NCBI GenBank assembly: GCA_021464245.1
Contig: JADCRB010000016.1
Span: 1,932,348 to 1,996,347, forward strand
DNA: 64,000 bases
DNA from: Carallia brachiata
Taxonomy: Eukaryota > Streptophyta > Magnoliopsida > Malpighiales > Rhizophoraceae
Direction: 5' to 3'
The position numbers and the translations under genes were made by a program. The number at the start of each line of letters is the position of its first letter. Positions within the stretch are counted from its first letter, which is position 1. Shown piece after piece: positions 20,456 through 50,683 of this stretch. The notes below the pieces were generated by a model. It ran no database searches. It was not told the origin of the DNA and worked only from the letters and a program-made list of their open reading frames with translations.

Positions 20456-20571
20456 GTAAGGAATAACTTTACAGACGTGATCTGCACCGAGTCTTGAAGT
20501 CCAGTTTGAAACTTGAGATGTCCTGATGAACATTGAATGTTGAAGTCTTCTAACTCTGACTATGCTTGCTG

Positions 20572-21359: not shown

Positions 21360-21368
21360 CTTATCTTG

Positions 21369-21995: not shown

Positions 21996-22159
21996 CTTTC
22001 TTGTGGCAGTGGAGCAAAGGTCTAGTATGTGGCGAAGATCGGTTGAGACTGAGGCTGGGTTTTAGACTCAAACCCTCCGTTGCTTTTATATTTTTGGGCC
22101 ATTCACAGTTTATACTCATGCAGCCCAGGAGTTGGATTGGATTTTGAACCTGGGTTCTG

Positions 22160-22437
22160 GACTTGTGTCTGGAACTTGGGATTTTTGGGTTTCAGGTTTT
22201 TGGATTGGATTTGGGTCGAGTGTTTGGACTTCTAGACTTGAATTTTTGTATTTGGGTAGAGTGTTTGGGTTTTGGACTTGGACTTTTGGATTTGGGTCGA
22301 GTGTTTGGGTTTTGGATCTGGACTTAGTTTTCAGGCTTTTGGGTTGGGCTTGAGTTTTCTGATTTGGACTCAAGTGTTTGAGTTTGGATTTTCAGGTTTG
22401 GATTTTTGCTTAGACTTTCAGATCGGGACTTTCGAAC
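22160..22437. repeat. Degenerate TTTGGGTTTGGA low-complexity tract (element 1a)
   Basis: Imperfect repeats of TTTGGGTTTTGGACTTGGA-like units between the homeobox gene and the poly(T) run. The counterpart in element 2 is at 42770-43010. On the minus strand it reads as Asn/Pro/Lys-rich frames, which I treat as non-coding. Confidence 0.7.
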
Positions 22438-22461
22438 TTTTTTTTTTTTTTTTTTTTTTTT

Positions 22462-22514
<53 letters not shown>
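22438..22514 (-). repeat. Long poly(A) tract on element strand (poly(T) on +)
   Basis: Nearly pure T on the plus strand, 77 bp, directly downstream (minus strand) of the integrase end. Shared with element 2 (43014-43141). Confidence 0.9.
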
Positions 22515-22518
<4 letters not shown>

Positions 22519-22529
22519 ATATTTACACA

Positions 22530-25500
22530 TAATACTGTTTCAGAAATTTACCATTGATCGGGCCAATTCGGACGCCTTCTTGGTCTGACAGCATGTAAGC
22601 GTTGTGAGTATAGGCCTCCTGCACTAAGTATGGCCCGTCCCATTTGGAAGTAAGCTTGTCACCAGGCCGATGCTTCATGTTGATGGGCCGTCGCACTGCA
22701 AGAACAAGGTCTCCAACTTGAAAAGATCGAGGGCGGACCCTGCGGTTGAACGTGTTGGTGAGCCGGGCTTGGTAGCACTCAAGTTGCTGTTGTGCTTCGA
22801 GCCTCCTTTCATCGAGGCTTCTAACTCATCCAGACGTAGGCGAGCATTCTCCTCCTGTGTGAGTCCTTCCAGAACAGCCATGCGCAGGATGGAATCTGTG
22901 TTTCCAACGGCAGTATTGCTTCGACACCGTAGACAAGTGAGTATGGCGTCGCCTGTGTTGGAGTCCGGTAAGTTGTACGATACGCCCATAATGCCTCCGG
23001 AATTCTGTCATGCCAATCTCTTTTGGATTTAGAGACTACCTTCCGCAACAGGTTGCATAAGGTCTTGTTGAATGCTTCAGCCAAGCCATTTGCTGGGGCA
23101 TTGTACATGGATGACTTGTACTGCTTGAACTTGAACTTCTCGCAGAGCTTGTCGATAAGCTGTTGTAGAACTGCTTGCCATTATCAGTGATGATGAATCG
23201 AGGGACTCCATAGCGATAGATCAGCTGAGTCCGGATGAAATTGGCAACATGCTCCTTCTTTACCTCTCTAAGTGGAATGGCTTCAGCCCATTTTGAGAAG
23301 TGTTGCTGCGAGGATGTACAGGTGACCCAGGGATGACTTTGGCAAGGGCCCCACTAAGTCGAGACCCCAAGCTTCAAAGGGCCAGGAGAGATGAGACAGT
23401 TGGATGCAGTGGCTGGTGGTTGATGTATGTAATTCGCATGAAATTGACAAGCTTGACAGGTTTTAGCAAACTCAATTGAATCACGTACCATGGTTGGCCA
23501 GTAGTATCCCATCCTTCTGAGTTGGAAGTGCAACTTAGGCCCTGATTGATGTCCGCCACAAACACCAGAATGTGCTTCAGCGAGAGCCTGTTTTGCCTCT
23601 TCATTGCCTAGGCAGCGAAGTAAAACTCCATCAAAAGACCTTCGATACAGAGCATCCTTGAGATATATGAAGCGGGGAGCTCGTCGTTGAATTTCTGTCT
23701 TATGACGACGATCTTCGGGCAGCTTCCCGTGCTGTAGGTAGTCAATGATTGGTTGGCGCCAATCCTCGTCCTCCGCGAGACGTACAGATACAGCGTTGGC
23801 TGCTGTAGTTTTTCTTCATCATCTGTGGCACTATCCATTTCTGGCATACGGCAACAACTGTAGCCTGGATTTCTGACTTTGCAAGAGAGTGGCCAGGTTA
23901 GCCAACGCGTCTGCCTGAGTGTTTTCTCGTCGAGGCACATGCTCCAAGGTGATGCTTTCAAATTCATCCATTAGCTGTCGAGCACGTTGATGGTAAGGCG
24001 CAAGTCCTCTTTCTTCATCATACAATCCTGTAAGTTGGTTGATGACGAGCTGGGAATCTCCATGGACTTCTATAGTTGGAATCTTCATATCGACAGCCAT
24101 TTGAAGACCAATGATCAAAGCCTGGTATTCAGCAACATTATTTGAACATAACTCACCGAGAATGATAGCATATGGTAGTATTTGTCGTTGAGGAGTGACA
24201 AACACTATGCCGGCACCAGCACCATCACGCCTTGCTGCACCATCAAAGAACATCGTCCATGGTGGCAGTGTCTCAATGTAAAAGACCTCTTCATCTGGAA
24301 GATCATCTGTGAACTCCCAATCTGACGGACAGGGTGATCTGCAAGGAAGTCTGCTAGAGCTTGTCCTTTGACTGCTTTTTGAGGCACGTAGACAATGTCG
24401 TAGCTTTGTAGGATTACTGCCCACTTGGCAAGTCGTCCTGACAAGATTGGTCTAGATAAGATATATTTGACAGGATCAGCTCTGGCAATGAGACGTACCG
24501 TGTGAGCTTGCATGTAGTGCCTCAGCTTGTCAATGGCAAAGAACAGTGCTAGACATGTCTTTTCAATGGGCGAATAACTCAGCTCCGGACCGTTTAGTGT
24601 TCTGCTCAAGTATACAGGGCAACTTCCTTTCCCTGCTCATTTTCCTGTGCAAGCAAGGCTCCCAAAGATCTTTCCTGCGCTGCAATGTAGAGAATCAACG
24701 ACTTTCCTTGAATTGGAGCACCTAGGACGGTGGATTGGAAAGGTACTTCTTTATGCTCTCAAAGGCTTTGCTGCAAGCTTCGTCCCACTCGAAGTTGACA
24801 TCCTTCTTCATCAACCGATGGAAAGGTTGACATCTCCCAGCTAAATTGGAGATGAAACGGCGAATGTAGGCCAGCTTTCCTTGTAGACTTCGCAGCTCGT
24901 GCAGGTTTTTAGGTTCAGGCATCTTTTGAATTGCCTCAACCTTTGACTGATCAACTTCGATTCCACGATGGCGCACCACGAACCCAAGAAACTTTCCTGA
25001 TGTGACACCGAATGCGCACTTGAGAGGGTTCATTTTGAGCTGATGCCTCCGAAGTCTTTCGAACACTCTTGAGATCCTCGAGGTGGTCTTTGCGCTTCTT
25101 AGTCTTTACAACTAAGTCATCAACATAACATTCTACAATCTTGTGCAGCATGTCATCAAAAATTTTTTGCATAGCACGTTGATAAGTGGCGCCAGCATTT
25201 TTTAATCCAAACGGCATAACTTTGTAGCAGTATATACCTTTTGGGGTGCGGAATGCTGTCAACTCCTCGTCTTCTGGTGCCATTCTGATTTGGTTATAGC
25301 CTGAAGAACCATCCATGAAGGACAATGCTTCGTGACCCGTTGTTGCATCGACTGTGATCTCCGTTATGGGCAACGGAAAGTCATCTTTCGGGCAGGTCCT
25401 GTTAAGATCTCGAAAATCAACACATACCCTCAACTGTCCATTCTTCTTTCTTACCGGGACAATGTTGGCAATCCACGTTGGGTAGGTGACCTCTCGGATG

Positions 25501-28047
25501 AAGCCAGCATTGATCAGCTTGTTAACCTCCTCCTCGATTTGTGGAATGAGTTCCGGGCGGAACCGTCGTTGTGGCTGCTTGACAGAACGAACACCCTTCT
25601 TTACTGCTAGACGATGCACCGCAATTTTGGGTCAAGTCCAGGCATTTCTTTGTAACTCCATGCGAACACGTCCCTGTATTGACTTAATACCTGAACATAT
25701 TCTTGCTCTTCTTCTGCAGTAAGTAAAGCACTTACAAATGTAGGTCGAGGATCTTCCGGAGAGCCAAGATTGACCTCCTTGAGTTCATCAACAGTTGCTT
25801 GGCCACCATCTTCAAGTTCCGGGGGAGCCTCCTTACTTCACCATCTGATGAGTCGGACTCAGCCTCCTCGCTAATTGTGACATGAAATGAGAACCTCTGA
25901 CTTCACCTTCTTTGTTTGACTGGATAAGCCTGTCTTGTTTGGTGGTGGTGGTGATGGCACGTGCATCAGCTGCTCGGCTTCGGCTCTTTAGCGTGATCCG
26001 CACAGGTGACTTCTCCTGATAGCCTAAGCCAGGTCGGGACTGTGATGTTTGAGAAGCGGCGCCATGTGTGGACGGCAGCGTACCCATTGTGCTCGGGTTT
26101 GAGAAGTCATAGCCCGCCTTTGCCAAAAGCTTGTATGCATTAGGATCAAATCCTTCATGTGTTCTTCTTTCTGGAAGTGAGCCGCCTTCGACTGCCCCGT
26201 GTGTGGTTTGACGAAGCCTTTTAATGGTTTTGAAGATAAAACCGGCTCAATCTTTGGTATCGGCAGAGTGTAAGTCTCCTTCAGGTTGTGCAGCTTTTGT
26301 TGGGTTGGCTGTGCCTTGCTCCTGTTTAAGATCAATACAATAAGAGAAAGGGGGTTGACCTTCTGAGCGTCGTGACTTCGGCACATAGCGTAGGACTGGA
26401 GTGGAGCTTGAAGATGCAACATCCTTCGGACAAAGTTCAGCAGGCTGTGGCAGCTTTTCATTTGTGGAGCCTGGGGTTGGCATTGGCAGGTTCTTCGACA
26501 GCTTTTCCCTTTTTGTGGATGCCCCCAGTCCAAGTAGCTTTTGATGGAATGATCTCCGGATTGTCTGTGTCGGTGTAGAAGACTGCATCCGCCAAATGTG
26601 ATTCAGCATCATCGAACGGCTTTAAGTCAGCATTGACCTTTTGAACGCCACCATTGTAGTACTTGAAGCACTGATGCAGGCTTGAGAGCACAACTCCATT
26701 TCCATGAATCCACGGTCGTCCTAGCAACATCTTATATGTGGTACGTGCATCAATCACATGAAATAGAGTGCTAGAAGTGAGATTACCGATAGTTAGCTCC
26801 AAGCGAATCATCCCAATTGCTTTCTGTCCTCCTTGATTAAAGCCATGAATCATCAAGCGGCTGTCTGATAATTCATCAATGCCGATGCCGAGCTCCTTTA
26901 TGGTGGATTTTGGGATAATATTGACTGCTGAGCCATCGTCGATCAGAATACGTCGGACCTTCTGTTCTCTCACATAGCCCGATACATACAGGCCGATTGT
27001 GGGGTTTGGACCCCAGCAGGAGATCCTCATCTGAAAATGAGATAGCAGAGTAACATCCGACGTGATTTTGGTCCGCCTGTGCTCCTCCGAGCTGGAATCT
27101 TGATGGTGATTCAGCTGAGGTCTGGAGTATTGCGACTTGATTTTGCCACACTTCTGTTGATTGCAAAGCTGTAAACAGCTGAGGGTTAGCGATAAGGGTT
27201 TGGAAAGCTTCATATACCTTCTCCGTTGTCGACTTTTTATTGTCGAGCGGCTCTTCCTTACGGTGTGTCAGCTCTTCTGATGGTTTTAAAGTGATGGTGG
27301 TCTGGTTTACCGAGGTTACGCCTTCCTGGTCCAGAATGATTTTATTCTGGCTCTTGAGCTTCATGATTAGCTCCTTCATGACGAAACACTTCTCGGTTGG
27401 ATGACTTACTATGCGGTGATATTGGAACAATCTTGGATCGCTGACTCGATCCTTATCATTAGGCCGCTTGCACTTTGGGAGTTCGATCAGCTTCGCCTCT
27501 ACGAGTTGGTCAAGGATGTCACCTTCTTCCTTTCATGTTGTTTTGGCTGAGTTATTTGAGTCGGAGGATTTACTTTAACTTTGGCTCCCACTTTTACTGG
27601 TGCGGCTTCAACAATCATCACTTCTTTTTCTTTTCCGTAACTGTTAGGTTTCTTAATCTCCCTTCTGCCTCCTTGCTGGTCCAACTGGATGGGAACCGTA
27701 CTCCCGGAAGTCTAGATGTTTATCTCCATATCATGTGCGTGGGTCGCCAGTTCTTCGAAAGTTTGGGGTTTGATGCCCTGCAAGATGTATAACAGCTCCC
27801 AATGCATTCCCTGGATGCACATCTCTACGGCAGAAGTCTCCGTCAGGCGATCTTTGCAGTCCAAGCTGATAGCACGCCATCTGTTGATGTATTCGACAGC
27901 GGGCTCTCCTTTCTTTTGTTTGGTGCTGGTAAGCTCCATCATACTTACCGTCCTTCGAGTGCTGAAAGATCTGTTAAGAAACTCTCATTGTAGCTGTTCC
28001 CAACTGTCGATTGATTCAGGTTCAAGATTTATGAACCAGGTGAAAGC
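22530..28047 (-). pseudogene. Tat-type gag-pol remnant of element 1a
   Basis: Domains on the minus strand, read from gag to integrase: gag fragment (27712-28047); CCHC-like segment (HPTEKC, near 27400); retropepsin with LIDDGSAVNIIP (about 26940); reverse transcriptase with CYVDD (about 25120); RNase H (24300-24800); a second archaeal-type RNase H with MFFDGAARRDGAGAG (about 24240); and integrase (22670-23600). Numerous frameshifts split these into separate frames, so no full polyprotein can be made. Aligning it with element 2 shows that most differences are 1-2 nt indels. Confidence 0.85.
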
Positions 28048-28048
28048 N
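28048..28048. other. Ambiguous base N at a probable assembly junction
   Basis: Left of the N the sequence is gag (matches element 2 near 48750). Right of it the sequence jumps to the region after the protease (matches element 2 at 46741). The gag-protease stretch is therefore present twice, at 26070-28047 and 28049-30050. Confidence 0.85.
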
Positions 28049-28262
28049 TTGAAAGTCATAGCCCGCCTTTGCCAAAAGCTTGTATGCATTAGGATCAAAT
28101 CCTTCATGTGTTCTTCTTTCTGGAAGTGAGCCGCCTTCGACTGCCCCCGTGTGTGGTTTGACGAAGCCTTTTAATGGTTTTGAAGACAAAACCGGCTCAA
28201 TCTTTGGTATCGGCAGAGTGTAAGTCTCCTTCAGGTTGTGCAGCTCCTTTGTTTTGGGTTGG

Positions 28263-30921
28263 CTATCCTTGCTCCTGTTTAAGATCAATACAATAAGAGA
28301 AAGGGGGTTGACCTTCTGAGCGTCGTGACTTCGGCACATAGCGTAGGACTGGAGTGGAGCTTGAAGATGCAACATCCTTCGGACGAAGTTCAGCAGGCTG
28401 TGGCAGCTTTTCATTTGTTGGAGCCTGGGTTGGCATTGGCAGGTTCTTCGACAGCTTTTCCCTTTTTGTGGATGCCCCCAGTCCAAGTAGCTTTTGATGG
28501 AATGATCTCCGGATGTGTCTGTGTGTGTAGAAGACTGCATCCGCCAAATGTGATTCAGCATCATCGAACGGCTTTAAGTCAGCATTGACCTTTTGAACGC
28601 CACCATTGTAGTACTTGAAGCACTGATGCAGGCTTGAGAGCACAACTCCATTTCCATGAATCCACGGTCGTCCTAGCAACATCTTATATGTGGTACGTGC
28701 ATCAATCATGAAATAGAGTGCTAGAAGTGAGATTACCGATAGTTAGCTCCAAGCGAATCATCCCAATTGCTTTCTGTCCTCCTTGATTAAAGCCATGAAT
28801 CATCAAGCGGCTGTCTGATAATTCATCAATGCCGATGCCGAGCTCCTTTATGGTGGATTTTGGGATAATATTGACTGCTGAGCCATCGTCGATCAGAATA
28901 CGTCGGACCTTCTGTTCTCTCACATAGCCTGATACATACAGCGGCCGATTGTGGGGTTTGGACCCCAGCAGGAGATCCTCATCTGAAAATGAGATAGCAG
29001 AGTAACATCCGACGTGATTTTGGTGGCCGTCTGTGCTCCGCGAGTTAGAATTTGATGGCTGAGATTCAGCTGAGGTCTGGAGAGTATTGCTGACTTGATT
29101 TTGCCACACTTCTGTTGATTGCAAAGCTATAAACAGCTGAGGGTTAGCGAGAAGGGTTTGGAGAGCTTCATATACCTTCTCCGTTGTCGACTTTTTGTTG
29201 TCGAGCGGCTCCTCCTTACGGTGTGTCACTCTTCTGATGGTTTTGAAGTGATGGTGGTCTGGTTTGCGAGGTTATGCCTTCCTGGTCCAGAATGATTTTA
29301 TTCTGGCTTTGAGCTTCATGATTAGCTCCTTCAGGACGAAACATTTCTCGGTTGGATGACTTACTATCCGGTGATATTTGCAGAATCTGGATCGCTGACT
29401 CGATCCTTTTCATTCGGCCGCTTGCACTCTGGGAGTTCGATCAGCTTCGCCTCCAAGAGTTGTTCAAGATGTCGGGACGTCTGAGTCGGGGAATGGATAC
29501 TGCTTCTGCTCCAACTCTCGCAATGTCACCTTCCGCCTTTCCTGTTGTTTTGGCTGAGTTATTTGGGTCGGAGGATTTACCTTAGCTTTGGCGCCCACTT
29601 TTACTGGTGCGGCTTCAACAGTCATCACTTCTTTCCTTTTCCGGAGCTGTTGGGTTTCTTAATCTCCCTTCTGCCCCCTTGCTGGTCCAACTGGATGGGA
29701 ACCGTGCCTCCGGAAGTCTGGATGCTTATCTCCATATCATGTGCGCGGGTCGCCAGTTCTTCGAAAGTTCGGGGTTTGACACCCTGCAGGATGTATAACA
29801 GCTCCCAATGCATTCCCTGGATGCACATCTCACGGCAGAAGTCTCCGTCAGGCGATCTTTGCAGTCCAAGCTGAGGGCACGCCATCTGTTGATGTATTCG
29901 ACAACGGGCTCTCCTTTCCTTTGTTTGGTGCTGGTAAGCTCCATCATACTTACCGTCCTTCGAGTGCTGAAAAATCTGTTGAGGAACTCTCGTTGTAGCT
30001 GTTCCCAACTGTCGATCGATTCTGGTTCAAGATTTATGAACCAGGTGAAAGCGGTCTCCCTGAGTGAACGAACAAACTGCTTCACCAAGAGATCTCCATA
30101 AGTCCCTGCGTTGTTGCAGGTTTCAACGAAGTGGGCGATGTGCTGTTTGGGATCGCCTCGTCCGTCGAATTGTTGAAATTTGGGCGGCTGGTAGCCCAAG
30201 GGCATGTTGAGACTTTCGATCCGTCTGGTGTACGGTTTGACGTACATCTGTGATCCTTGGAAGGATGTAGCTTGTTGCAGTCGGATCGTATTGGCTATCA
30301 TTTCCTGCAATTGTTGAACAGATAGCGAAGCTACAGAATTTGAGGGTGGCAGCTGTGTAGAACTACCTGGTCGCTTTTCTGCAGGAAGACGTCGGCTGGT
30401 GTGGCTTCTGGAGTGAAACCGGGTGGATATGGTTGCTCCTCGCGGATCTCGGGATCAACTTGGATCGGGGCCTTTCCTTTGAGAGCGGCGATCTGTTGAT
30501 CTTTTTCCTCCACGACTCTGATCAGCTGCAAAATTTTGTTCTCCAATTCTGAAATTCTTTCCTCTGTGCTGGTTGTGTTGGTCATCATGACGGCAACAGA
30601 TGAGGCTCCGGGAAAGACTGGGGGAGAAAACTCTTCTGATTCTGTGGATCTCTGTGAGTTGGATTTGTTGAGCAGGCTTCGTCGTGTTGCCCCCGACTTC
30701 GATCGGGGTGGGTGATCGACTCCTCCATGCGGCAAGAGAGTCAGGGGAGAGATCCTGTTGTGCGAGCTGTGGACTCTCCATTTCGATATTTTGTCGGGTT
30801 TGGACGGCAAGAAATTGTGTCCGTCCCCGGGTTTCTGGACCTGCGTACCCAGGTAGGGTAGTTGATGCAGGCAATGGAGCCGTTGCCTTCTTGTGTGGCA
30901 GCTGTACTCTTTTGGTGCCAT
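28263..30921 (-). pseudogene. Tat-type gag and protease of element 1b
   Basis: The start ATG at 30921 (MAPKEYSC) opens the gag N-terminal region. A coiled-coil-like segment (ISELENKILQLIRVVEEKDQ) follows near 30500. The retrotransposon gag domain lies at 29726-30310 (FVRSLRETAFTWF, REFLNRFFSTRR), the CCHC-like region near 29350, and the protease LIDDGSAVNIIP near 28880. Gag would form the particle and the protease would process it. Frameshifts separate these segments. Confidence 0.8.
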
Positions 30922-30939
30922 TTGATGTGCTGAACACCT

Positions 30940-31062
30940 GTAAATTTTTTTTTTTTTTTTACTTTTTACTTTTTTTTTTTACTTTTTACTTTTACTTTTT
31001 TTTTACTTTTTTTTTTTTTTTTTTTTTTTTCTCGGCTCCCCTTTTACCTTTTTTTTTTTTTT
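30940..31062 (-). repeat. A-rich leader tract of element 1b
   Basis: Runs of T interrupted by 'actttttac' on the plus strand, between primer site and gag start. Same layout in element 2 at 49646-49802. Confidence 0.8.
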
Positions 31063-31091
31063 TAAGGAACAAGAGATGGGAGGTGAAGTTG

Positions 31092-31108
31092 TCCCACCGA
31101 GCGTGCCA
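31092..31108 (-). other. Primer-binding site, element 1b
   Basis: The minus strand reads TGGCACGCTCGGTGGGA, starting with TGG as expected for pairing with a tRNA CCA end, 6 nt from the LTR. I did not assign the tRNA. Identical in element 2. Confidence 0.75.
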
Positions 31109-31114
31109 AAAATT

Positions 31115-31926
31115 TGTAAAGCGTAAATTTCGAGTCTAAAACAATTAAACTCGAAAATACAAAAATAAATTACAAATAAAAATTGTAAATAAAAGAAAAT
31201 TTACGGGTCGATCTCCGTAGATCCTCCGATTAGTGTTCCTTTTTTGACTCCGTCAAGGGCTGCACGAGCTTGATCTTGACAGAAATAATTTCCACAACTT
31301 TTTCTTGAACTGGGTAGACTGAAACGGATCTGATTTGGACGTTTTGACTACGTTAAGACCGCAGAGACCTGATCTGAGCCGATCTGACTTAATTTCACCG
31401 AGGGTCGAAGGGACTTGTTCTCGGATGAGCTGCCTGGATTTTGCTGAGGGCCGTATGAGCTTAATCCCAGCCGGATTTGTAGTAATTTGATATTTTTAGA
31501 TCTATATTCTCATAAATTTAGATCTACAGCGATCAGAGAATATAAATCTAAAAATAACTTTGGAAATGGAAACAGCAAATTTTTTGGGCCTTACCCCTGA
31601 AATATCTCTCAAAAAGGAGTTAGGAGAGTATACTGCAGAGTAAAAGCACGTAAGAAAAGGAGAAATTTTCTTGAGAGATTTTTAAAATTTTCTTTTTCTC
31701 TCAAATTCTCTGAATTTTTCTGTTTACAGATTTGCTGAATGTCCCTTTGAACTGAGGCTGGAGGGCCTTTTTATAGGCCCTCCAGAGAGGACCTTACGCC
31801 ACCAATCTTGAAATTCAAGATTGGCGGCCAATCTTGAATTTCAAGATTGGTGGCTGCCAATCTTCTTCTTCTTCTTGTTGTTTTTTTTTTTTTTTTTTTT
31901 TTTTTAATTTGAAAAGGATGTTTACA
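31115..31926 (-). repeat. LTR of element 1b (5' LTR)
   Basis: 812 bp, TGTAAA...TTTACA. A TATAAAAA box (minus strand) lies near 31768-31779. Its U3 contains two tandem 23-bp palindromes absent from the other LTRs. Confidence 0.9.
31802..31850. repeat. Two tandem perfect palindromes in U3 of element 1b
   Basis: CCAATCTTGAA-A-TTCAAGATTGG (31802-31824) is followed after 3 nt by the same palindrome with central T (31828-31850). They lie just upstream of the TATA box on the element strand. Confidence 0.9.
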
Positions 31927-32715
31927 ATACTATATAAGATTTATACTTTAAATTTTTTGGTAAAATCTTTCTAATTTTAAATTTCAATTTTATTAATTCA
32001 TATTTTGTTAATGTAATTACATTTTGTTAGTAAATAGTTGCATTTTATTGCTTTGTTCAGATAAATTTTTCAACTACACAGTTGGAGTCTAAAACTGCAG
32101 ATACAATTTTAAACATGTATACCCAAAAAAAAAAAACAATAAGTGTGCCCCACGAGGCCCCTTACCCCCAATTACATTAGAGTCAATTAAAGAAAAAACT
32201 CAAGAAAAATCACAGGAATAATACGGGTACATTTTCATGCATGCACAAGCCTTTAATCTCAAGAAAAATCTTTTGGATCCGTGACTAGGGGATTTTTTTT
32301 AAGGAAAATGAAAAAAAAAAAAAAAAAAGCAATTCATCATCTACTGCCTGTCTGCATCCAGGACGGACCATGGAAGTTGACAATTAATATTGGGAAATCT
32401 GCACAAGTTTGTAGGGAATCTAGAACTCTTCTCTACCAAAAAAAAAAAAAAAAAAAAAGAATTTGTGCCCCATTTTTTGTTTGTAGGGAATCTGCACAAT
32501 TTTTTTTTCTCTATATTCACCATTCCATACAAAAATATTTAAGGGGAATGCAATTTTTTTTAAAACATATATACAAAAGGTAAAAAAAAAATAATAATAA
32601 GCATCCCCCACTAACCCCCACCCCCCCTATGATCTCCTGGCTATTTTAAAGCGAGCAAAGTATTCCTCCGGAACCTGCAAGCAAGCAAGCAAGCAATAAA
32701 CTAATAGTCATAGCC
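31927..32715 (+). promoter_or_regulatory. Upstream region of the P450
   Basis: AT-rich. A TATTTTAA TATA-like motif lies at 32642-32649, about 70 nt before the ATG. A (GCAA)n run is present in the 5' leader (32678-32696). A 15-bp direct repeat GTTTGTAGGGAATCT occurs at about 32407 and 32478. Confidence 0.4.
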
Positions 32716-40108: not shown

Positions 40109-40223
40109 CTGCCATTATTCCAGCTGGTTCTTTCGCACTAATATTTTTCTCAAATTCACGGACAAACGCATTCATATGCTCACTTGAATTGTTATCATCG
40201 TAAAAACAAGCCTGTATAGTCTC
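40109..40223 (-). pseudogene. Diterpene synthase exon, part downstream of the retrotransposon
   Basis: Continues the same codon frame from the duplicated GAGAC: QACFYDDNNSSEHMNAFVRE and onward to GIMA, donor G/GTAATT (phase 1). Confidence 0.9.
40219..40223. repeat. Target-site duplication of element 2, left
   Basis: GTCTC directly before TGTAAA. The identical GTCTC follows TTTACA at 50679-50683. Confidence 0.95.
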
Positions 40224-41046
40224 TGTAAAGCGTAAATTTCGAGTCTAAAACAATTAAACTCGAAAATACAAAAATAAATTACAAATAAATATTTAAAAAT
40301 AAAAGAAAATTTACGTGGGGTCGATCTCCGTAGATCCTCCGATTAGTGTTCCTTTTTTGACTCGGTCAAGGGCTGCACGAGCTTGATCTTGACAGAAATA
40401 AATTCCACAGATTTTTCTTGAACTGGGTAGACTGAAACCGGATCTGATTTGGACGTTTTGACTACGGTTAAGAACCGCAGAGACCTGATCTGAGCCGATC
40501 TGACTTAATTTCACCGAGGGTCGAAGAGACTTGTTCTCGGATGAGCTGCCTGGATTTTGCTGAGGGCCGTATGAGGCTTAATCCCAGCCGGATTTGTAGT
40601 AATTTGATATTTTTAACTCTATATTCTCAGAAATTCAGATCTAGAACGATCCAAGAATATAAATTTAAAAATAACTTTAGAAATGGAAACAGCAAATTTT
40701 TTGGGCTTTACCCCTGAAATATCTCTCAAAACGGAGTTAGGAGAGTATACTGCTAAGTAAAAGCACGTAAGAAAGGAGAAATTTTCTTGAGAGATTTTCA
40801 AAATTTTCTTTTTCTCTCAACTCTGAATTTTTTCTGTTTACAGATTTGCTGAATGTCTTTTGAACTGGGGGGCAGGGGCCTATTTATAGGGTTCCTTTCC
40901 CATGTGAACATCACATGGGAAAGGAATCTTTTTAATTGAAAATATTTTTCAAAGTTGGCGTTGCCGACTTTGAAATCGGCAACGCCAATTTTGACTTTTC
41001 TTTTTTTTTTTTTTTTTTTTTTTTTCCTTTGAAAATGATGTTTACA
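40224..41046 (-). repeat. Element 2, 3' LTR
   Basis: TGTAAA...TTTACA, 823 bp. The TATA box (TATAAATAG on minus) lies at 40879-40890. Two perfect hairpins lie upstream of it in U3. Confidence 0.95.
40892..40988. repeat. Two perfect hairpins in the U3 of element 2
   Basis: Hairpin one is TTCCTTTCCCATGTGA-ACA-TCACATGGGAAAGGAA (40892-40926), a 16-bp stem with a 3-nt loop. Hairpin two is TTGGCGTTGCCGA-8 nt-TCGGCAACGCCAA (40955-40988), a 13-bp stem. The 5' LTR copy (50519-50616) has one mismatch in the first stem. Confidence 0.92.
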
Positions 41047-41494
41047 AATGCCCCCACTTCAAGGGTCGGTAAGGAAAAACTTTACAGACGTGATCCGCAC
41101 CGAGTCTTGAAGTCCAGTTTGAAACTTGGAAACGTCCTGATGAACATTGAATCTTGGAGTCTTCTATCTTTGACCATGCCTGCTGTTGTTGGATCGCAAT
41201 AGGAACCCGATACGATCTTGAGAAAGTTAGCAGCCCAGCCAATATAGAAATTGAAGCCTTGGCTCCAGGTGCATTCGAGCTTCCATAGCCCGCAAAGGAT
41301 TTTTTATATCTCTTAAAGTTCCAGAGCTCTGGTGAGGATGATCCGGTAGGCAAAGAACTTGAACCTCCCCAAGAGGAAGGCCCAGCACTTTGGAACTTTA
41401 AGACCTGCGCACAGAGAGACGGGTTATGGTGATGATTCCCGAATCTGCTTCGACGTAAGGAGAGTAGTTGGAACTTCCCTGCACGTCGCTGCAT
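41042..41494 (-). other. ORF of unknown function downstream of the homeobox gene, element 2
   Basis: Open frame of 150 residues with its N-terminal 100 residues matching 20572-20880 of element 1a. It runs into the polypurine tract and LTR end, which argues that at least its tail is not selected as protein. Ser- and basic-rich, no domain recognised. Confidence 0.3.
41047..41064 (-). other. Polypurine tract of element 2
   Basis: The minus strand reads GAAGTGGGGGCATT immediately before the 3' LTR. Confidence 0.8.
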
Positions 41495-41909
41495 TTGTAG
41501 ATCCAGGAGGACGATCAGAACTTCTCGGCTCGCTGCGATAGATGTGAACTAAGGAGAGTAGTTGGAACTCCATGACACCGATGGCGTTGGAGATTGAGTT
41601 TCGAGGGCTTTTAGGGATCCCTCGAAGAAGACTACTCCTTCTTTTCTTAGCTCGTGCGCCTCCAACTTCTTGATCGAAGAACTTCCTGAGACAAGTGCAG
41701 AGACTAAGCCATTTTTCTTTTGAGAAAGAAGAGCTGAGGGGTGAATATTACAACTCGGGCATGCAGGATATATATACAAATAATAAAGAGTTTTTTTTTT
41801 TTTTTTTTTTTTTAAAAGTCAAAAAAGGTATGCAGAATCGGATAGGGCCATCCACGTCCCTTTCCTGCATAAGAGACAAAAGAGGCAGCGGCTGACGCGT
41901 GTCACGAAA

Positions 41910-41986
41910 GTCGTTACCGTGTGTGGCAGAAGTCGTTGCCGTGTGCTGCGGAAGTCGTTGCCGCGTGCTGCAGAAGTCGTTGCACC
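41910..41986. repeat. 22-bp tandem repeat, 3.5 copies (element 2)
   Basis: GTCGTTGCCGTGTGCTGCRGAA units, same array and same place as in element 1a. Confidence 0.88.
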
Positions 41987-42003
41987 TTATCTTGTCGGCC
42001 GTC

Positions 42004-42748
42004 CTAGCGGGGCCCGAGGTGCAACTCCAAGTCAAGCTCGACCTCGTCTGGGGGCCGATGATGTTGATGTCAACGTCGACGTCGCTTTCCGGCTGGTTGA
42101 TGCTGCCGGAATATTCTGGAAAGAGAGGCAAAGTTTCGCCGGAATGACTCCTTTCTGCTAGAAAATGTCCTCCTAGACTTAAGTACCTAGAGGGATGAAC
42201 CCTTGGCTGACTCCGTAAGACCACCAGGACCAGCGTGCATGCTCCCATGGGCTACGGCTTTGATGAACATACCGTGGAGAGACTATTGCGGTGGAAGAAC
42301 TCGGACCTGCTTCATTTGACGGCGAAGTTGTACTGGTGGGATCTACCATCGGAACAGCAGACTGTTCTTTGGAAAAATCAGCTCTCAGTGCTGGTTTCTT
42401 CCTGCTTCTCCGATTCTGGAACCAATAAAACACATTTTTTCCTTCGATTGCCCCGAGTGGGCGCAATCGTGAGACAAGTTGGTAAATCTGAGATGCATTA
42501 GGCATAATACCTCCATTGTTGTGGAAGACTTCCTCTAGAATTTGCAGTTGCGCCATGGTTGGTTGCCACCTTGTGCGGGGTGACCTTTCTTCTCCCTTGT
42601 CTTGAGGTTCTGCAACTGGTTCCATCTTTCTTGTGGCAGAGGAGCAAAGGTTGGTGTGTGGTGAAGATCGATTGAGACTGATGCTGAGTTTCAGACTCAA
42701 ACCCTCCGTTGCTTTTATATTTTTGGGCCGTTCACAGTTTATACTCAT
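42004..42748 (-). pseudogene. Retrotransposon-borne WUSCHEL-related homeobox gene, element 2 copy
   Basis: The frame from ATG 42748 (or the ATG at 42623-42625, where similarity to 1a begins) has a homeodomain at residues 56-118 (42395-42583). It opens PRTRWQPTMAQLQILEE, has IEGKNVFYWFQN as in the WUS clade, and ends NRRSRKK. It stays open for 189 residues to a stop at 42179-42181 caused by a missing base near 42190. In the next frame lie the WUS-box-like TLPLFP (42117-42134) and, after a second missing base near 42050, the EAR-like LDLELHL (42016-42036) and the stop at 42004-42006. The order homeodomain, WUS-box, EAR is that of WUS-type repressors. Same strand as pol, about 0.4 kb past its end. 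The homeodomain alone remains translatable. Expression unknown. Confidence 0.88.
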
Positions 42749-42769
42749 GCGGGCCAGGAGTTGGATTGG

Positions 42770-43010
42770 ATTTTGAACCTGGTTCTGGACTGTGTTTAGA
42801 ACTTGGAATTTTTTGGGTTTTGGGCTTTGAATTGAATTTGGGTTGATTTGGATTTGGGTTTTTGGATCGAGTGTTTGGGTTTGGACTTTTGGATTTGGGT
42901 TGAGTGTTTGGGTTTGGACTTAGTTTTGTGTTTTCTGAATTGGGCTCAAGTGTTTGGGTTTGGATTTTTGGGTTTGGATTTTCGCTTGGACTTTCAGATC
43001 GGGACTTCCG

Positions 43011-43013
<3 letters not shown>
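42770..43013. repeat. Degenerate TTTGGGTTTGGA low-complexity tract (element 2)
   Basis: Same tract as 22160-22437 with different unit numbers. No TTTAGGG, so not telomeric. Confidence 0.7.
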
Positions 43014-43042
<29 letters not shown>

Positions 43043-43055
43043 GATTTTTATTTTT

Positions 43056-43124
<69 letters not shown>

Positions 43125-43141
43125 ATTTTTTTTTTTTTTTT
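43014..43141 (-). repeat. Long poly(A)-like tract on element strand
   Basis: About 128 bp of T on plus with three GA interruptions. It lies just after the integrase end, as in element 1a. Predicted poly-Lys or poly-Phe frames here are artefacts. Confidence 0.9.
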
Positions 43142-43150
43142 CAAACATAT

Positions 43151-46100
43151 TTACACATAATATTGTTTCAGAAATTTACCATTGATTGGGCCGATTCGGA
43201 CGCCTTCTTGGTCTGACAGCATGTAAGCGTTGTGAGTGTAGGCCTCCTGCACTAAGTATGGCCCGTCCCATTTGGAAGTAAGCTTGTCACCAGGCCGATG
43301 CTTCATGTTGATGGGCCGTCGCACTGCAAGAACAAGATCTCCAACTTGAAAAGATCGAGGGCGGACCCTGCGGTTGAATGTTGGTGAGCCGGGCTTGGTA
43401 GCACTCAAGTTGCTGTTGTGCTTCGAGCCTCCTTTCATCGAGAGCTTCTAACTCATCCAGACGTAGGCGAGCATTCTCCTCCTGTGTGAGTCCTTCCAGA
43501 ACAGCCATGCGCAGGGATGGAATCTGTGTTTCCAACGGCAGTATTGCTTCGACACCGTAGACAAGTGAGTATGGCGTCGCCTGTGTTGGAGTCCGGTAAG
43601 TTGTACGATACGCCCATAATGCCTCCGGAATTCTGTCATGCCAATCTCTTTTGGATTTAGAGACTACCTTCGCAACAGGTTGCATAAGGTCTTGTTGAAT
43701 GCTTCAGCCAAGCCATTTGCTGGGGCATTGTACATGGATGACTTGTACTGCTTGAACTTGAATTCTCGCAGAGCTTGTCATTAAGCTGTTATAGAACTGC
43801 TTACCATTATCAGTGATGATGAATCGAGGGACTCCATAGCGATAGATCAGCTGAGTCCGGATGAAATTGGCAACATGCTCCTTCTTTACCTCTCTAAGTG
43901 GAATGGCTTCAGCCCATTTTGAGAAGTAGTCGGTTGCTGCGAGGATGTACAGGTGACCTAGGGATGACTTTGGCAAGGGCCCCACTAAGTCGAGACCCCA
44001 AGCTTCAAAGGGCCAGGATGAGACAGTTGGATGCAGTGGCTCCGGTGGTTGATGTATGTAATTCGCATGAAATTGACAAGCTTGACAGGTTTTAGCAAAC
44101 TCAATTGAATCACGTACCATGGTTGGCCAGTAGTATCCCATCCTTCTGAGTTGGAAGTGCAACTTAGGCCCTGATTGATGTCCGCCACAAACACCAGAAT
44201 GTGCTTCAGTGAGAGCCTGTTTTGCCTCTTCATTGGCTAGGCAGCGAAGTAGAACTCCATCAAAAGACCTTCGATACAGAGCATCCTTGAGATATATGAA
44301 GCGGGGAGCTCGTCGTTGAATTTCTGTCTTATGACGACGATCTTCGGGCAGCTTCCCGTGCTGTAGGTAGTCAATGATTGGTTGACGCCAATCCTCGTCC
44401 TCCGCGAGACGTACAGATACAGCGTTGGCTGCTGTAGTTTCTTCATCATCCTTCTGTGGCACTATCCATTTCTGGCATACGGCAACAACTGTAGCCTGGA
44501 TTTCTGACTTTGCAAGAGAAGTGGCCAGGTTAGCCAACGCGTCTGCCTGAGTGTTTTCTCGTCGAGGCACATGCTCCAAGGTGATGCTTTCAAATTCATC
44601 CATTAGCTGTCGAGCAAGTTGATGGTAAGGTGCAAGGTCCTCTTTCTTCACATCATACAATCCTGTAAGTTGGTTGATGACGAGCTGGGAATCTCCATGG
44701 ACTTCTATAGTTGGAATCTTCATATCGACAGCCATTTGAAGACCAATGATTAAAGCCTGGTATTCAGCAACATTATTTGAACATAACTCACCGAGAATGA
44801 TAGCATATGGTAGTATTTGTCGTTGAGGAGTGACAAACACTATGCCAGCACCAGCACCATCACGCCTTGCTGCACCATCAAAGAACATCGTCCATGGTGG
44901 CAGTGTCTCAATGTAAAAGACCTCTTCATCTGGAAGATCATCTGTGAACTCCCAATCTGACGGAATAGGGTGATCTGCAAGGAAGTCTGCTAGAGCTTGT
45001 CCTTTGACTGCTTTTTGAGGCACGTAGACAATGTCGTAGCTTTGTAGGATTACTGCCCACTTGGCAAGTCGTCCTGACAAGATTGGTCTGGATAAGATAT
45101 ATTTGACAGGATCAGCTCTGGCAATGAGACGTACCGTGTGAGCTTGCATGTAGTGCCTCAGCTTGTCAATGGCAAAGAACAGTGCTAGACATGTCTTTTC
45201 AATGGGCGAATAACTCAGCTCCGGACCGTTTAGTGTTCTGCTCAAGTAGTACAGGGCAACTTCCTTTCCCTGCTCGTTTTCCTGTGCAAGCAAGGCTCCC
45301 AAAGATCTTTCCTGCGCTGCAATGTAGAGAATCAACGACTTTCCTTGAATTGGAGCACCTAGGACCGGTGGATTGGAAAGGTACTTCTTTATGCTCTCAA
45401 AGGCTTTGCTGCAAGCTTCGTCCCACTCGAAGTTGACATCCTTCTTCATCAACCGATGGAAAGGTTGACATCTCCCAGCTAAATTGGAGATGAAACGGCG
45501 AATGTAGGCCAGCTTTCCTTGTAGACTTCGCAGCTCGTGCAGGTTTTTAGGTTCAGGCATCTTTTGAATTGCCTCAACCTTTGACTGATCAACTTCGATT
45601 CCACGATGGCGCACCACGAACCCAAGAAACTTTCCTGATGTGACACCGAATGCGCACTTGAGAGGGTTCATTTTGAGCTGATGCCTCCGAAGTCTTTCGA
45701 ACACTGTCTTGAGATCCTCGAGGTGGTCTTTGCGCTTCTTAGTCTTTACAACTAAGTCATCAACATAACATTCTACAATCTTGTGCAGCATGTCATCAAA
45801 AATTTTTTGCATAGCACGTTGATAAGTGGCGCCAGCATTTTTTAATCCAAACGGCATAACTTTGTAGCAGTATATACCTTTTGGGGTGCGGAATGCTGTC
45901 AACTCCTCGTCTTCTGGTGCCATTCTGATTTGGTTATAGCCTGAAGAACCATCCATGAAGACAATGCTTCGTGACCCGTTGTTGCATCGACTGTGATCTC
46001 CGTTATGGGCAACGGAAAGTCATCTTTCGGGCAGGCCTTGTTAAGATCTCGAAAATCAACACATACCCTCAACTGTCCATTCTTCTTTCTTACCGGGACA

Positions 46101-49100
46101 ATGTTGGCAATCCACGTTGGGTAGGTGACCTCTCGGATGAAGCCGGCATTGATCAGCTTGTTCACCTCCTCCTCGATTTGTGGAATGAGTTCCGGGCGGA
46201 ACCGTCGTTGTGGCTGCTTGACAGAACGGACACCCTTCTTTACTGCTAGACGATGCACCGCAATTTTTGGGTCAAGTCCAGGCATTTCTTTGTAACTCCA
46301 TGCGAACACGTCCCTGTATTGACTTAATACCTGAACATATTCTTGCTCTTCTTCTGCAGTAAGTAAAGCACTTACAAATGTAGGTCGAGGATCTTCCGGA
46401 GAGCCAAGATTGACCTCCTTGAGTTCATCAACAGTTGCTTGGCCACCATCTTCAAGTTCCGGGGGAGCCTCCTTCACTTCACCATCTGATGAGTCGGAAT
46501 CAGCCTCCTCGCTAATTGTGACATGAAATGCAGAACCTCTGACTTCACCTTCTTTGTTTGACTGGATAAGCCTGTCTTGTTTGGTGGTGGTGGTGATGGC
46601 ACGTGCATCAGCTGCTCGGCTTCGGCTCTTTAGCGTGATCCGCACAGGTGACTTCTCCTGATAGCCTAAGCCAGGTCGGGACTGTGATGTTTGAGAAGCG
46701 GCGCCATGTGTGGACGGCAGCGTACCCATTGTGCTCGGGTTTGAAAGTCATAGCCCGCCTTTGCCAAAAGCTTGTATGCATTAGGATCAAATCCTTCATG
46801 TGTTCTTCTTTCTGGAAGTGAGCCGCCTTCGACTGCCCCCGTGTGTGGTTTGACGAAGCCTTTTAATGGTTTTGAAGATAAAACCGGCTCAATCTTTGGT
46901 ATCGGCAGAGTGTAAGTCTCCTTCAGGTTGTGCAGCTCCTTTGTTTTGGGTTGGCTATGACCTTGCTCCTGTTTAAGATCAATACAATAAGAGAAAGGGG
47001 GTTGACCTTCTGAGCGTCGTGACTTCGGCACATAGCGTAGGACTGGAGTGGAGCTTGAAGATGCAACATCCTTCGACGAAGTTCAGCAGGCTGTGGCAGC
47101 TTTTCATTTGTTGGAGCCTGGGGTTGGGCATTGGCAGGTTCTTCGAGCTTTTCCCTTTTTGTGGATGCCCCCAGTCCAAGTAGCTTTTGATGGAATGATC
47201 TCCGGATTGTCTGTGTCGGTGTAGAAGACTGCATCCGCCAAATGTGATTCAGCATCATCGAACGGCTTTAAGTCAGCATTGACCTTTTGAACGCCACCAT
47301 TGTAGTACTTGAAGCACTGATGCAGGCTTGAGAGCACAACTCCATTTCCATGAATCCATGGTCGTCCTAGCAACATCTTATATGTGGTACGTGCATCAAT
47401 CACGTGAAATAGAGTGCTAGAAGTGAGATTACCGATAGTTAGCTCCAAGCGAATCATCCCAATTGCTTTCTGTCCTCCTTGATTAAAGCCATGAATCATC
47501 AAGCGGCTGTCTGATAATTCATCAATGCCGATGCCGAGCTCCTTTATGGTGGATTTTGGGATAATATTGACTGCTGAGCCATCGTCGATCAGAATACGTC
47601 GGACCTTCTGTTCTCTCACATAGCCTGATACATACAGCGGCCGATTGTGGGGTTTGGACCCCAGCAGGAGATCCTCATCTGAAAATGAGATAGCAGAGTA
47701 ACATCCGACGTGATTTTGGTCCGCCTGTTGCTCCGCTGAGTTAGACTCATTTGATGGCTGTGATTCAGCTGAGGTCTGGAGAGTATTGCTGACTTGATTT
47801 TGCCACACTTCTGTTGATTGCAAAGCTATAAACAGCTGAGGGTTAGCGAGAAGGGTTTGAAGAGCTTCATATACCTTCTCCGTTGTCGACTTTTTGTTGT
47901 CGAGTGGCTCCTCCTTACGGTGTGTCACCTCTTCTGATGGTTTGAAGTTGAAGTGATGGTGGTCTGGTTCGCCGAGGTTATGCCTTCCTGGTGATGCAGA
48001 ATGATTTTATTCTGGCTTTTGAGCTTCATGATTAGCTCCTTCAGGACGAAACACTTCTCGGTTGGATGACTTACTATCCGGTGATATTTGCAGAATCTCG
48101 GATCGCTGACTCGATCCTTTTCATTCGGCCGCTTGCACTCTGGGAGTTCGATCAGCTTCGCCTCCAGGTTGTCAAGGATGTCGGGACGTCTGAGTCGGGG
48201 AATGGATACTGCTTCTGCTCCAACTCTCGCAATGTCACCTTCCGCCTTTCCTGTTGTTTTGGCTGAGTTATTTGGGTCGGAGGATTTACCTTGCTTTGCG
48301 CCCACTTTTACTGGTGCGGCTTCAACAGTCATCACTTCTTTCCTTTTCCGGAGCTGTTGGGTTTCTTAATCTCCCTTCTGCCCCCTTGCTGGTCCAACTG
48401 GATGGGAACCGTGCCTCCGGAAGTCTGGATGCTTATCTCCATATCATGTGCGCGGGTCGCCAGTTCTTCGAAGTTCGGGGTTTGACACCCTGGATGTATA
48501 ACAGCTCCCAATGCATTCCTGGATGCACATCTCCACGGCAGAAGTCTCCGTCAGGCGATCTTTGCAGTCCAAGCTGAGGGCACGCCATCTGTTGATGTAT
48601 TCGACAACGGGCTCTCCTTTCTTTGTTTGGTGCTGGTAAGCTCCATCATACTTACCGTCCTTCGAGTGCTGAAAAATCTGTTGAGGAACTCTCGTTGTAG
48701 CTGTTCCCAACTGTCGATCGATTCTGGTTCAAGATTTATGAACCAGGTGAAAGCGGTCTCCCTGAGTGAACGAACAAACTGCTTCACCAAGAGATCTCCG
48801 TAAGTCCCTGCGTTGTTGCAGGTTTCAACGAAGTGGGCGATGTGCTGTTTGGGATCGCCTCGTCCGTCGAATTGTTGAAATTTGGGCGGCTGGTAGCCCA
48901 AGGGCATGTTGAGACTTTCGATCCGTCTGGTGTACGGTTTGACGTACATCTGTGATCCTTGGAAGGATGTAGCTTGTTGCAGTCGGATCGTATTGGCTAT
49001 CATTTCCTGCAATTGTTGAACAGATAGCGAAGCTACAGAATTTGAGGGTGGCAGCTGTGTAGAACTACCTGGTCGCTTTTCTGCAGGGAAGACGTCGGCT

Positions 49101-49622
49101 GGTGTGGCTTCTGGAGTGAAACCGGGTGGATATGGTTGCTCCTCGCGGATTTCGGGATCAATTGGATCGGGGCTTTTCCTTTGAGAGCGCGATCTGTTGA
49201 TCTTTTTCCTCCACGACTCTGATCAGCTGCAAAATTTTGTTCTCCAATTCTGAAATTCTTTCTCTGCTGGTTGTGTTGGTCATCATGACGGCAACAGATG
49301 AGGCTCCGGGAAAGACTGGGGGAGAAAACTCTTCTGATTCTCTGTGTGAATGAGTTGGATTTTGTTGAGCAGGCTTCGTCGTGTTGCCCCCGACTTCGAT
49401 CGGGGTGGGTGATCGACTCCTCCATGCGGCAAGAGAGTCAGGGAGAGATCCTGTTGTGCGAGCTGTGGACTCTCCATTTCGACATTTTTCGGGTTTGGAC
49501 GGCAAGAAATTGTGTCCGTCCCCGGGTTTCTGGACCTGCGTACCCAGGTAGGGTAGTTGATGCAGGCAATGGAGCCGTTGCCTTCTTTTTGTGGCAGCAG
49601 TTGTACTCCTTTTCGGTGCCAT
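43151..49622 (-). pseudogene. Tat-type gag-pol of element 2
   Basis: From the start at 49622 (MAPKRSTT): gag domain at 48444-49012 (FVRSLRETAFTWF); CCHC-like CKYHRIVSHPTEKC near 48080; retropepsin LIDDGSAVNIIP near 47580; reverse transcriptase with YVDD (45756-45767); RNase H; archaeal-type RNase H starting MFFDGAARRDGAGAG (about 44890); integrase with HHCC (44070-44200), Asp motifs (FIITDNG near 43810) and NGLAEAFN; and an integrase C-terminal domain ending near 43151. The product would copy and integrate the element. A 750-codon frame (43704-45956) is intact from mid reverse transcriptase to integrase. Single-base losses near 45959 and 43760, and several in gag, split the rest. Confidence 0.93.
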
Positions 49623-49645
49623 TTGATGTGCTGAACACCTGTAAA

Positions 49646-49704
49646 ATTTTTTTTTTTTTTTTTTTTTTACTTTTTTACTTTTTTTTTTTTTTTTTACTTT
49701 TTTT

Positions 49705-49765
<61 letters not shown>

Positions 49766-49802
49766 CTCTCGGCTCTTTTCCTTTACTTTTTTTTTTTTTT
49801 TT
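49646..49802 (-). repeat. A-rich leader of element 2
   Basis: Poly(T) on plus with 'actttttac' interruptions, between gag start and primer site. Confidence 0.85.
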
Positions 49803-49830
49803 TAAGGAACAAGAGATGGGAGGTGAAGTG

Positions 49831-49847
49831 TCCCACCGAGCGTGCCA
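49831..49847 (-). other. Primer-binding site of element 2
   Basis: Minus strand TGGCACGCTCGGTGGGA, 6 nt from the 5' LTR. tRNA not assigned. Confidence 0.78.
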
Positions 49848-49853
49848 AAAATT

Positions 49854-50618
49854 TGTAAAGCGTAAATTTCGAGTCTAAAACAATTAAACTCGAAAATACA
49901 AAAATAAATTACAAATAAAATTTAAAAAAAAGAAAATTTACGTGGGGTCGATCTCCGTAGATCCTCCGATTAGTGTTCCTTTTTTGACTCCGTCAAGGGC
50001 TGCACGAGCTTGATCTTGACAGAAATAATTCCACAGCTTTTTCTTGAACTGGTAGACTGAAACCGGATCTGATTTGGACGTTTTGACTACGGTTAAGAAC
50101 CGCAGAGACCTGATCTGAGCCGATCTGACTTAATTTCACCGAGGGTCGAAGACTTGTTCTCGGATGAGCTGCCTGGATTTTGCTGAGGGCCGTATGAGGC
50201 TTAATCCCAGCCGGATTTGTAGTAATTTGATATTTTTAACTCTATATTCTCAGAAATTCAGATCTAGAACGATCCAAGAATATAAATTTAAAAATAACTT
50301 TAGAAATGGAAACAGCAAATTTTTTGGGCTTTACCCCTGAAATATCTCTCAAAACGGAGTTAGGAGAGTATACTGCTAAGTAAAAGCACGTAAGAAAAGG
50401 AGAAATTTTCTTGAGAGATTTTCAAAATTTTCTTTTTCTCTCAAATTCTCTGAATTTTTCTGTTTACAGATTTGCTGAATGTCTTTTGAACTGGGGGGCA
50501 GGGGCCTATTTATAGGGTTCCTTTCCCATGTGAACATCACATGAGAAAGGAATCTTTTTAATTGAAAATATTTTTCAAAGTTGGCGTTGCCGACTTTGAA
50601 ATCGGCAACGCCAATTTT

Positions 50619-50657
<39 letters not shown>

Positions 50658-50678
50658 CCTTTGAAAATGATGTTTACA
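49854..50678 (-). repeat. Element 2, 5' LTR
   Basis: 825 bp, TGTAAA...TTTACA, TATA box at 50505-50516 (minus). Nearly identical to 40224-41046. Confidence 0.95.
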
Positions 50679-50683
50679 GTCTC
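50679..50683. repeat. Target-site duplication of element 2, right
   Basis: GTCTC directly after the LTR end at 50678, matching 40219-40223. Confidence 0.95.

What the first reader, a model, noticed from the sequence alone, without database searches (positions are those of the whole stretch)
42004..42748. A WUSCHEL-type homeobox gene carried inside an LTR retrotransposon
Seen: a homeodomain with the WOX signature (IEGKNVFYWFQN plus RRSRKK) lies on the element strand between the integrase end and the polypurine tract, inside LTRs with a matching 5-bp target duplication. Known: plant Tat elements often have long non-coding or extra-ORF regions there. Inference: an ancestral element captured a host WOX gene and has spread it. 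A mobile stem-cell-type transcription factor gene would be very unusual, and I know of no such report.
Basis: partly seen in the sequence, partly recalled or inferred. Interest (0 to 1): 0.95.

Follow-up and report, generated by a model that had tools for sequence, protein, structure and literature searches.

The report
Jumping element carrying a WUSCHEL-type gene
In this plant genome a retrovirus-like jumping element carries a WUSCHEL-type stem-cell control gene, found at more than 150 places and still readable from start to stop in some of them; its protein is predicted to act as a mobile WUSCHEL-like repressor, which would likely help the element reach cells that pass it on.

Summary
Element B (40224-50678, minus strand, 5-bp target duplication) is a Tat-type Ty3/gypsy retrotransposon with a WUSCHEL-type homeodomain between integrase and polypurine tract (Pfam E 1.7e-12). 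A WUS box and an EAR-like motif follow, out of frame in B but in one frame in 19 of 40 fetched copies; 11 of 40 read cleanly from ATG to stop. The host's two WUS genes are split over exons, the element gene is not. In the window's genome 150 of 150 scored matches carry the homeodomain, 118 of them identical over 68 residues. 39 of 40 copies end at an LTR with mutually unrelated flanks: separate insertions. Four are compact elements without recognisable gag-pol. Three homeodomain subtypes differ with dN/dS 0.07-0.43. A TATA-like site precedes the start codon. Function is inferred: a TOPLESS-recruiting WUS-like repressor acting on host genes. Against: 29 of 40 copies are broken, the homeodomain tree does not place the donor, window copies A and B show no constraint, and LTRs show no excess of WUS sites. 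Six paper searches found no earlier report.

The parts
40224..50678 (-). Element B, Tat-type Ty3/gypsy LTR retrotransposon, several frames interrupted
   Evidence: LTR pair 97.4% identical over 833 columns; TG..CA ends
40219..40223 (.). Target site duplication GTCTC, left
50679..50683 (.). Target site duplication GTCTC, right
49854..50678 (-). 5' LTR of B
48551..49012 (-). gag piece
   Evidence: PF03732 E 5.3e-8
47104..47928 (-). frame with weak aspartyl protease match
   Evidence: PF13650 E 8e-4, below its cut-off
43704..45956 (-). RT, RNase H, second RNase H (RVT_3), integrase
43151..43438 (-). integrase C-terminal end
   Evidence: PF24626 E 1.3e-4, below its cut-off
42712..42719 (-). TATAAAAG, predicted core promoter of the WUS-type gene
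   Evidence: prediction only
42004..42625 (-). WUS-type gene of B, ATG 42625 to the stop after the EAR-like motif; frame changes inside
42395..42571 (-). WUSCHEL-type homeodomain
42117..42137 (-). WUS box ETLPLFP
42016..42036 (-). EAR-like motif LDLELHL
41047..41061 (-). polypurine tract next to the 3' LTR
40224..41046 (-). 3' LTR of B
19597..31927 (-). Element A, chimeric relative, no clean target duplication
21369..21995 (-). WUS-type gene of A, one frame with two in-frame stops
21765..21941 (-). homeodomain of A (86% of 59 residues identical to B)

Best explanation
A Tat-type Ty3/gypsy retrotransposon family of this plant carries a one-frame WUSCHEL-type gene (homeodomain, WUS box, EAR-like motif), found at 150 of 150 scored genomic matches, and its protein is predicted to work as a mobile WUS-like repressor that would recruit TOPLESS and likely hold host cells in a stem-cell-like state from which new insertions are inherited. 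Shown: its place between integrase and polypurine tract, separate insertions of 39 of 40 fetched copies, a clean frame in 11 of 40, and fewer amino-acid than silent differences between subtypes. Inferred: capture from a spliced WUS-like mRNA; a transcript of its own from the TATA-like site; binding of TGAA/TAAT-type sites in host genes; repression through TOPLESS; benefit to the element in meristems.
For: 150 of 150 scored matches, 118 identical over 68 residues, 148 without a stop; 13 further copies outside that list. 39 unrelated flanks at LTR ends. 11 of 40 clean frames of 203-209 codons with homeodomain, WUS box and EAR. dN/dS between subtypes 0.07-0.43 in the homeodomain and 0.35-0.51 over the frame, Fisher p 1e-4 to 5e-3 in five tests. 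17 of 19 residues invariant in 47 plant WOX rows kept at 31/62 identity. WUS base contacts R38, Q89, N90, R94 kept. In Medicago, WUS box plus EAR recruit TOPLESS (PMC6305195, passages). TATAAAAG 93-97 bases before the ATG in 45 of 47 copies with the start context and enough upstream sequence. Four compact elements without gag-pol match, three of them with a clean gene.
Against: 29 of 40 fetched copies are not clean. A against B shows no excess of third-position changes. Two type-3 copies differ at dN/dS 0.71 over the frame. LTRs, leader and promoter stretch show no excess of WUS-type sites. The homeodomain tree leaves the element outside WUS plus WOX1-7 in the best tree, with neither placement rejected. 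No expression or binding data.
Confidence: 0.5

Rival explanations
1. Competitor rather than mimic: the protein occupies WUS sites or TOPLESS and so weakens the WUS-dependent exclusion of invaders from stem cells, letting the element move there.
For: WUS takes part in RNA virus exclusion from Arabidopsis stem cells (PMC10589665, passages). The homeodomain keeps base contacts but differs at half of its residues from host WUS (31/62) and has R at the S36 place, a change that shifted WUS toward TAAT sites.
Against: Both repression motifs are kept, whereas a mere blocker would not need them; exclusion is shown for RNA viruses, not for retrotransposons.
Confidence: 0.2
2. Self-regulator: the protein controls transcription of the element itself, like retroviral accessory factors.
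For: Antisense ORFs in this region of Grande-type elements are suspected of such roles (PMC7264820, parts 1-2).
Against: No excess of TGAA pairs, TAAT, TTAATG[GC] or CACGTG in LTR or leader against 300 shuffles.
Confidence: 0.12
3. Passenger: a captured gene amplified along with the element, now decaying, without use to it.
For: 29 of 40 copies broken; A against B looks neutral.
Against: Subtype comparisons show constraint; three of four compact elements keep a clean gene.
Confidence: 0.15
4. A host WOX gene duplicated with a nested transposon, or a segmental duplication.
For: A and B lie 20.6 kb apart in one orientation.
Against: A-B similarity stops at the LTR edges; 39 unrelated flanks; exact target duplications on B, L016 and L025.
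Confidence: 0.01

Closest known systems
WUSCHEL and WUS-clade WOX repressors
   Same: Homeodomain near the N-terminus, WUS box, EAR-like motif, WUS-length homeodomain
   Different: 203-209 codons in one frame, 31/62 homeodomain residues shared with host WUS, FQNRRSRKK in place of FQNHKARERQ, carried in a retrotransposon
Ty3/gypsy Tat elements, Ogre/Retand
   Same: Second RNase H between RNase H and integrase; long region between integrase and 3' LTR with an extra ORF (PMC6317226)
   Different: Extra ORF is WUS-type; the domains named there are plant mobile domain and Transposase_28
Phalaenopsis Gypsy elements with an AlkB-type demethylase, and YgdH/LONELY GUY or B3 domains in other Gypsy elements (PMC9289625, parts 1 and 3)
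   Same: Host-type domain acquired by Gypsy elements, in the AlkB case also Tat-related
   Different: No homeobox in the main text of that survey (0 occurrences; supplements not seen)
Grande gene23 and other antisense accessory ORFs (PMC7264820)
   Same: Between pol and 3' LTR; own promoter reported; nuclear protein
   Different: Antisense and without resemblance to host genes; this gene is sense and WUS-type

Membership tests
Ty3/gypsy Tat clade (Ogre/Retand) | LTRs, target duplication, pol order RT-RNase H-integrase | tested here: met
Ty3/gypsy Tat clade (Ogre/Retand) | second RNase H between RNase H and integrase | tested here: met
   RT_RNaseH 206-307, RVT_3 359-478, integrase 576-724 of the 750-aa frame; that RVT_3 equals aRH is my reading
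Ty3/gypsy Tat clade (Ogre/Retand) | RT/INT phylogeny and primer type | not tested
   no reference set used; PBS-like TGGCACGCTCGGTGGG seen, its tRNA not identified
WUS (WUS-clade WOX proteins) | WOX-type homeodomain | tested here: met
   WUS entries and STENOFOLIA are tied in Z
WUS (WUS-clade WOX proteins) | one-residue longer homeodomain than WOX1-5 | tested here: met
   spacing 50 in the element, in both host WUS and in 13 of 45 plant hits; 49 in seven host WOX1-5-type genes. One of the 13 is named WOX2, so the mark is not exclusive
WUS (WUS-clade WOX proteins) | WUS box followed by EAR-like motif | tested here: met
   19 of 40 copies in one frame with the homeodomain; same order in 7 of 45 plant hits, all with the WUS-length homeodomain
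WUS (WUS-clade WOX proteins) | groups with WUS in a tree | tested here: inconclusive
   p-AU 0.45 with WUS, 0.31 with WOX1-7; best tree outside both
WUS (WUS-clade WOX proteins) | DNA binding, TOPLESS recruitment, stem-cell activity | not testable with these tools
   needs experiments

The most novel reading that the evidence does not exclude
A plant counterpart of the oncogene-bearing retrovirus: a retrotransposon family has made a stem-cell master regulator its own gene, keeps it under selection in three subtypes, moves it even in compact elements that carry little else, and uses it to steer host meristem cells into a state that transmits the element.
Probability: 0.35. Interest if true: 0.97.

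Novelty: new variant of a known kind. Interest (0 to 1): 0.9.

Why it matters
Extra genes in plant retrotransposons are known, but the reviews read here say that most resemble nothing, and no homeobox or WUS gene among them was found in print. A WUS-type repressor with DNA-binding and repression parts, constrained between subtypes of a multicopy element, would make directly testable whether plant transposons manipulate meristem identity to reach the germ line. It also warns that WOX gene counts in such genomes can be inflated by transposon copies.

Tried and rejected
Host gene with nested transposon or segmental duplication: rejected. A spliced form joining homeodomain and WUS box in B (GTATGT at 42272, TAGCAG at 42160): rejected by hand, the joined frame misses the WUS box. 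Self-regulation through LTR sites: no excess. Naming the donor by homeodomain trees: unresolved. Relatives in IMG/VR: none. Protein searches: B gave 10 hits of 90 candidates, A plus B 35 of 837; as named or read, all are plant WOX-type proteins and I saw no transposon-borne relative, but the window's own genome may be left out there. Host species not identified: the P450 beside the elements matches scattered flowering plants at 45-62% in the part of the listing that I read. Genome-wide copy count by DNA or pattern: not completed. Nucleotide identity of compact against other copies (homeodomain 97.5%, rest of frame 93.6%, 3' non-coding 92.7%): not leaned on, since copies were chosen for an identical homeodomain and many gap columns were set aside. 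tRNA scan of the window: none.

Literature for a prior report: (wuschel, ltr retrotransposon, gene capture) found 0 papers. Searches asked other questions. The library holds open-licence papers only, so a subscription-journal report could be missed.

Full report
What is in the window. Element B (40224-50678, minus strand) has LTRs 97.4% identical, TG..CA ends and a GTCTC target duplication, a gag piece and a weak protease match, and RT, RNase H, a second RNase H and integrase in that order. A second RNase H between RNase H and integrase marks the angiosperm Tat clades Ogre and Retand (PMC6317226, section 13). Several of B's frames are interrupted. Element A (19597-31927) is a chimera: its WUS-type region and 3' LTR match B at 84-91%, its gag-pol at 98.8-100% in most 400-base windows, with 96.2 and 91.2% in the last two. 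It lacks a clean target duplication, and a 2-kb stretch is doubled beside a single N.

Spread. With B's 68-residue piece the own genome gave 1566 first-look candidates; 150 were scored, all 150 matched, 118 were identical over all 68 residues and 148 had no stop inside (my count of its rows). The search with Taraxacum WUS listed further places; of 20 short stretches fetched from it, 13 are element copies not in the list and 7 are host WOX genes. That makes at least 163 places. The 40 copies fetched at 6 kb were taken from the 118 identical ones, so their homeodomains are alike by choice. All 40 have an LTR match; 35 of 40 have the integrase end in the stretch. 39 of 40 have an LTR end plus flank, and no two flanks resemble each other. 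One of the 39, L047, is followed by a PBS-like sequence and is not a plain 3' end.

Compact elements. L016, L018, L025, L029 and L043 lack the integrase match, and their LTRs are only about 75% like B's. L016, L018, L025 and L043 show LTR pieces at both ends within the stretch, about 3.9-4.3 kb apart, and no gag or pol match beyond weak integrase-tail remnants; in L016 and L043 the two LTRs are 96-97% alike. L029 still holds a gag-region piece. Target duplications: L025 CTAAG and L016 GTTGT are exact; L043 lies in a CT repeat and is not exact. L018's ends were not checked. L016, L025 and L043 have a clean WUS-type frame; L018 has homeodomain to EAR open but not the start. They would need gag-pol from other elements (inference).

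Origin. The host keeps two WUS genes (81% and 66% identity to Taraxacum WUS over the aligned parts; L049, L050) and WOX1-5-type genes (L063-L069; the type names are my reading). In both WUS genes the homeodomain and the WUS box/EAR lie in separate open stretches with the box more than 700 bases downstream; in the element they are one frame. That fits capture through a spliced mRNA (inferred). The element has the WUS-length homeodomain, unlike the host's seven WOX1-5-type genes, and ETLPLFP equals the core of the host's WUS box. The tree does not settle it: seven element rows form one group (90/76), the best tree puts them outside WUS plus WOX1-7 (92/79), and neither a clade with WUS (p-AU 0.45) nor with WOX1-7 (0.31) is rejected (the smaller tree agrees). 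Capture is old, or the protein changed fast.

Selection. Three homeodomain types occur: type 1 (window), type 2 (GGIIPSASQ) and type 3 (FYN[ND]GGIVPNSTQ...VYFWFQNRRHRET). Types 2 and 3 were found with a plant WUS as query, not by likeness to B. In 11 chosen pairs among 11 long-frame copies (broken copies dropped; two type-2 rows cut by the stretch end, one without its start), dN/dS in the homeodomain is 0.07-0.08 (type 1 to 2), 0.24-0.27 (1 to 3) and 0.36-0.43 (2 to 3); outside it 0.36-0.68; over the frame 0.24-0.51, but 0.71 within type 3. Five Fisher tests give p 1e-4 to 5e-3; pairs share branches. In the 11 clean type-1 frames pN/pS is 0.33 overall, 0.61 in the middle, 0.31 in the C-terminal part and 1.09 in the first 18 codons; the homeodomain value of 0 follows from how copies were chosen. 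17 of 19 residues invariant in 47 plant rows are kept in B (16 in A) at 31/62 identity to host WUS (hypergeometric 3e-5), and 242 of 2000 neutral simulations to that identity stayed free of stops. Window copies A and B show no third-position excess.

How it likely works. WUS reads bases with R38, Q89, N90 and R94, and S36R shifted its binding on a TAAT probe toward the typical monomeric form (PMC7203112, passages). By the alignment the element keeps the four residues and has R at the S36 place. [quoted passage not shown] A WUS-like repressor is therefore the plainest prediction. LTRs, leader and promoter stretch of B show no excess of WUS-type sites, so host genes are the likelier targets. [quoted passage not shown]

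Novelty. Papers read in part (PMC7264820 parts 1-2; PMC9289625 parts 1 and 3 and a term search with 0 hits for homeobox; PMC6317226 section 13 and passages) describe extra ORFs and acquired domains (AlkB type, YgdH/LONELY GUY, B3, plant mobile domain, Transposase_28) but, in what I saw, no homeobox. Six paper searches showed no title or abstract start reporting a homeobox or WUS gene in an LTR element. The kind (LTR element with an acquired host gene) is known; this cargo, its repressor architecture and the compact carriers are new as far as I could see.

Noticed in passing
window 26099-28047 and 28049-30052: A 2-kb gag-region stretch of element A is doubled in tandem with a single N at 28048 between the copies: assembly artefact or duplication.
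   Followed up: partly
window 19597-22500 against 22500-27000: Element A changes from 84-91% to about 99% identity with B near the poly-A tract after integrase, a sign of recombination or conversion between subfamilies.
   Followed up: partly
window 11293-12084, 32650-34228, 51810-52133: Chalcone/stilbene synthase, cytochrome P450 and a terpene synthase fragment lie near the elements, perhaps a specialised-metabolism neighbourhood.
   Followed up: partly
window 2890-7063 and 13608-19596: Another diverged direct duplication of several kb, 85-94% identical in pieces.
   Followed up: no
L009, L014, L015, L017, L018, L020-L023, L027: 10 of 40 copies break the reading frame before or inside the homeodomain at short base runs; sequencing error or true decay was not separated.
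   Followed up: no
L058-L061: A divergent homeodomain subtype (VYFWFQNRRHRET) with WUS box and EAR in two of the four stretches.
   Followed up: partly
P0018-P0020: Short WUSCHEL-like proteins, two of them named as Ipomoea, with an odd homeodomain (FQNQRNRERH); two of the three have box and EAR. Worth checking for a similar mobile origin.
   Followed up: no
window 42780-43150: A CCAAA-type minisatellite and a long A-tract (element strand) lie between integrase and the WUS-type promoter.
   Followed up: no
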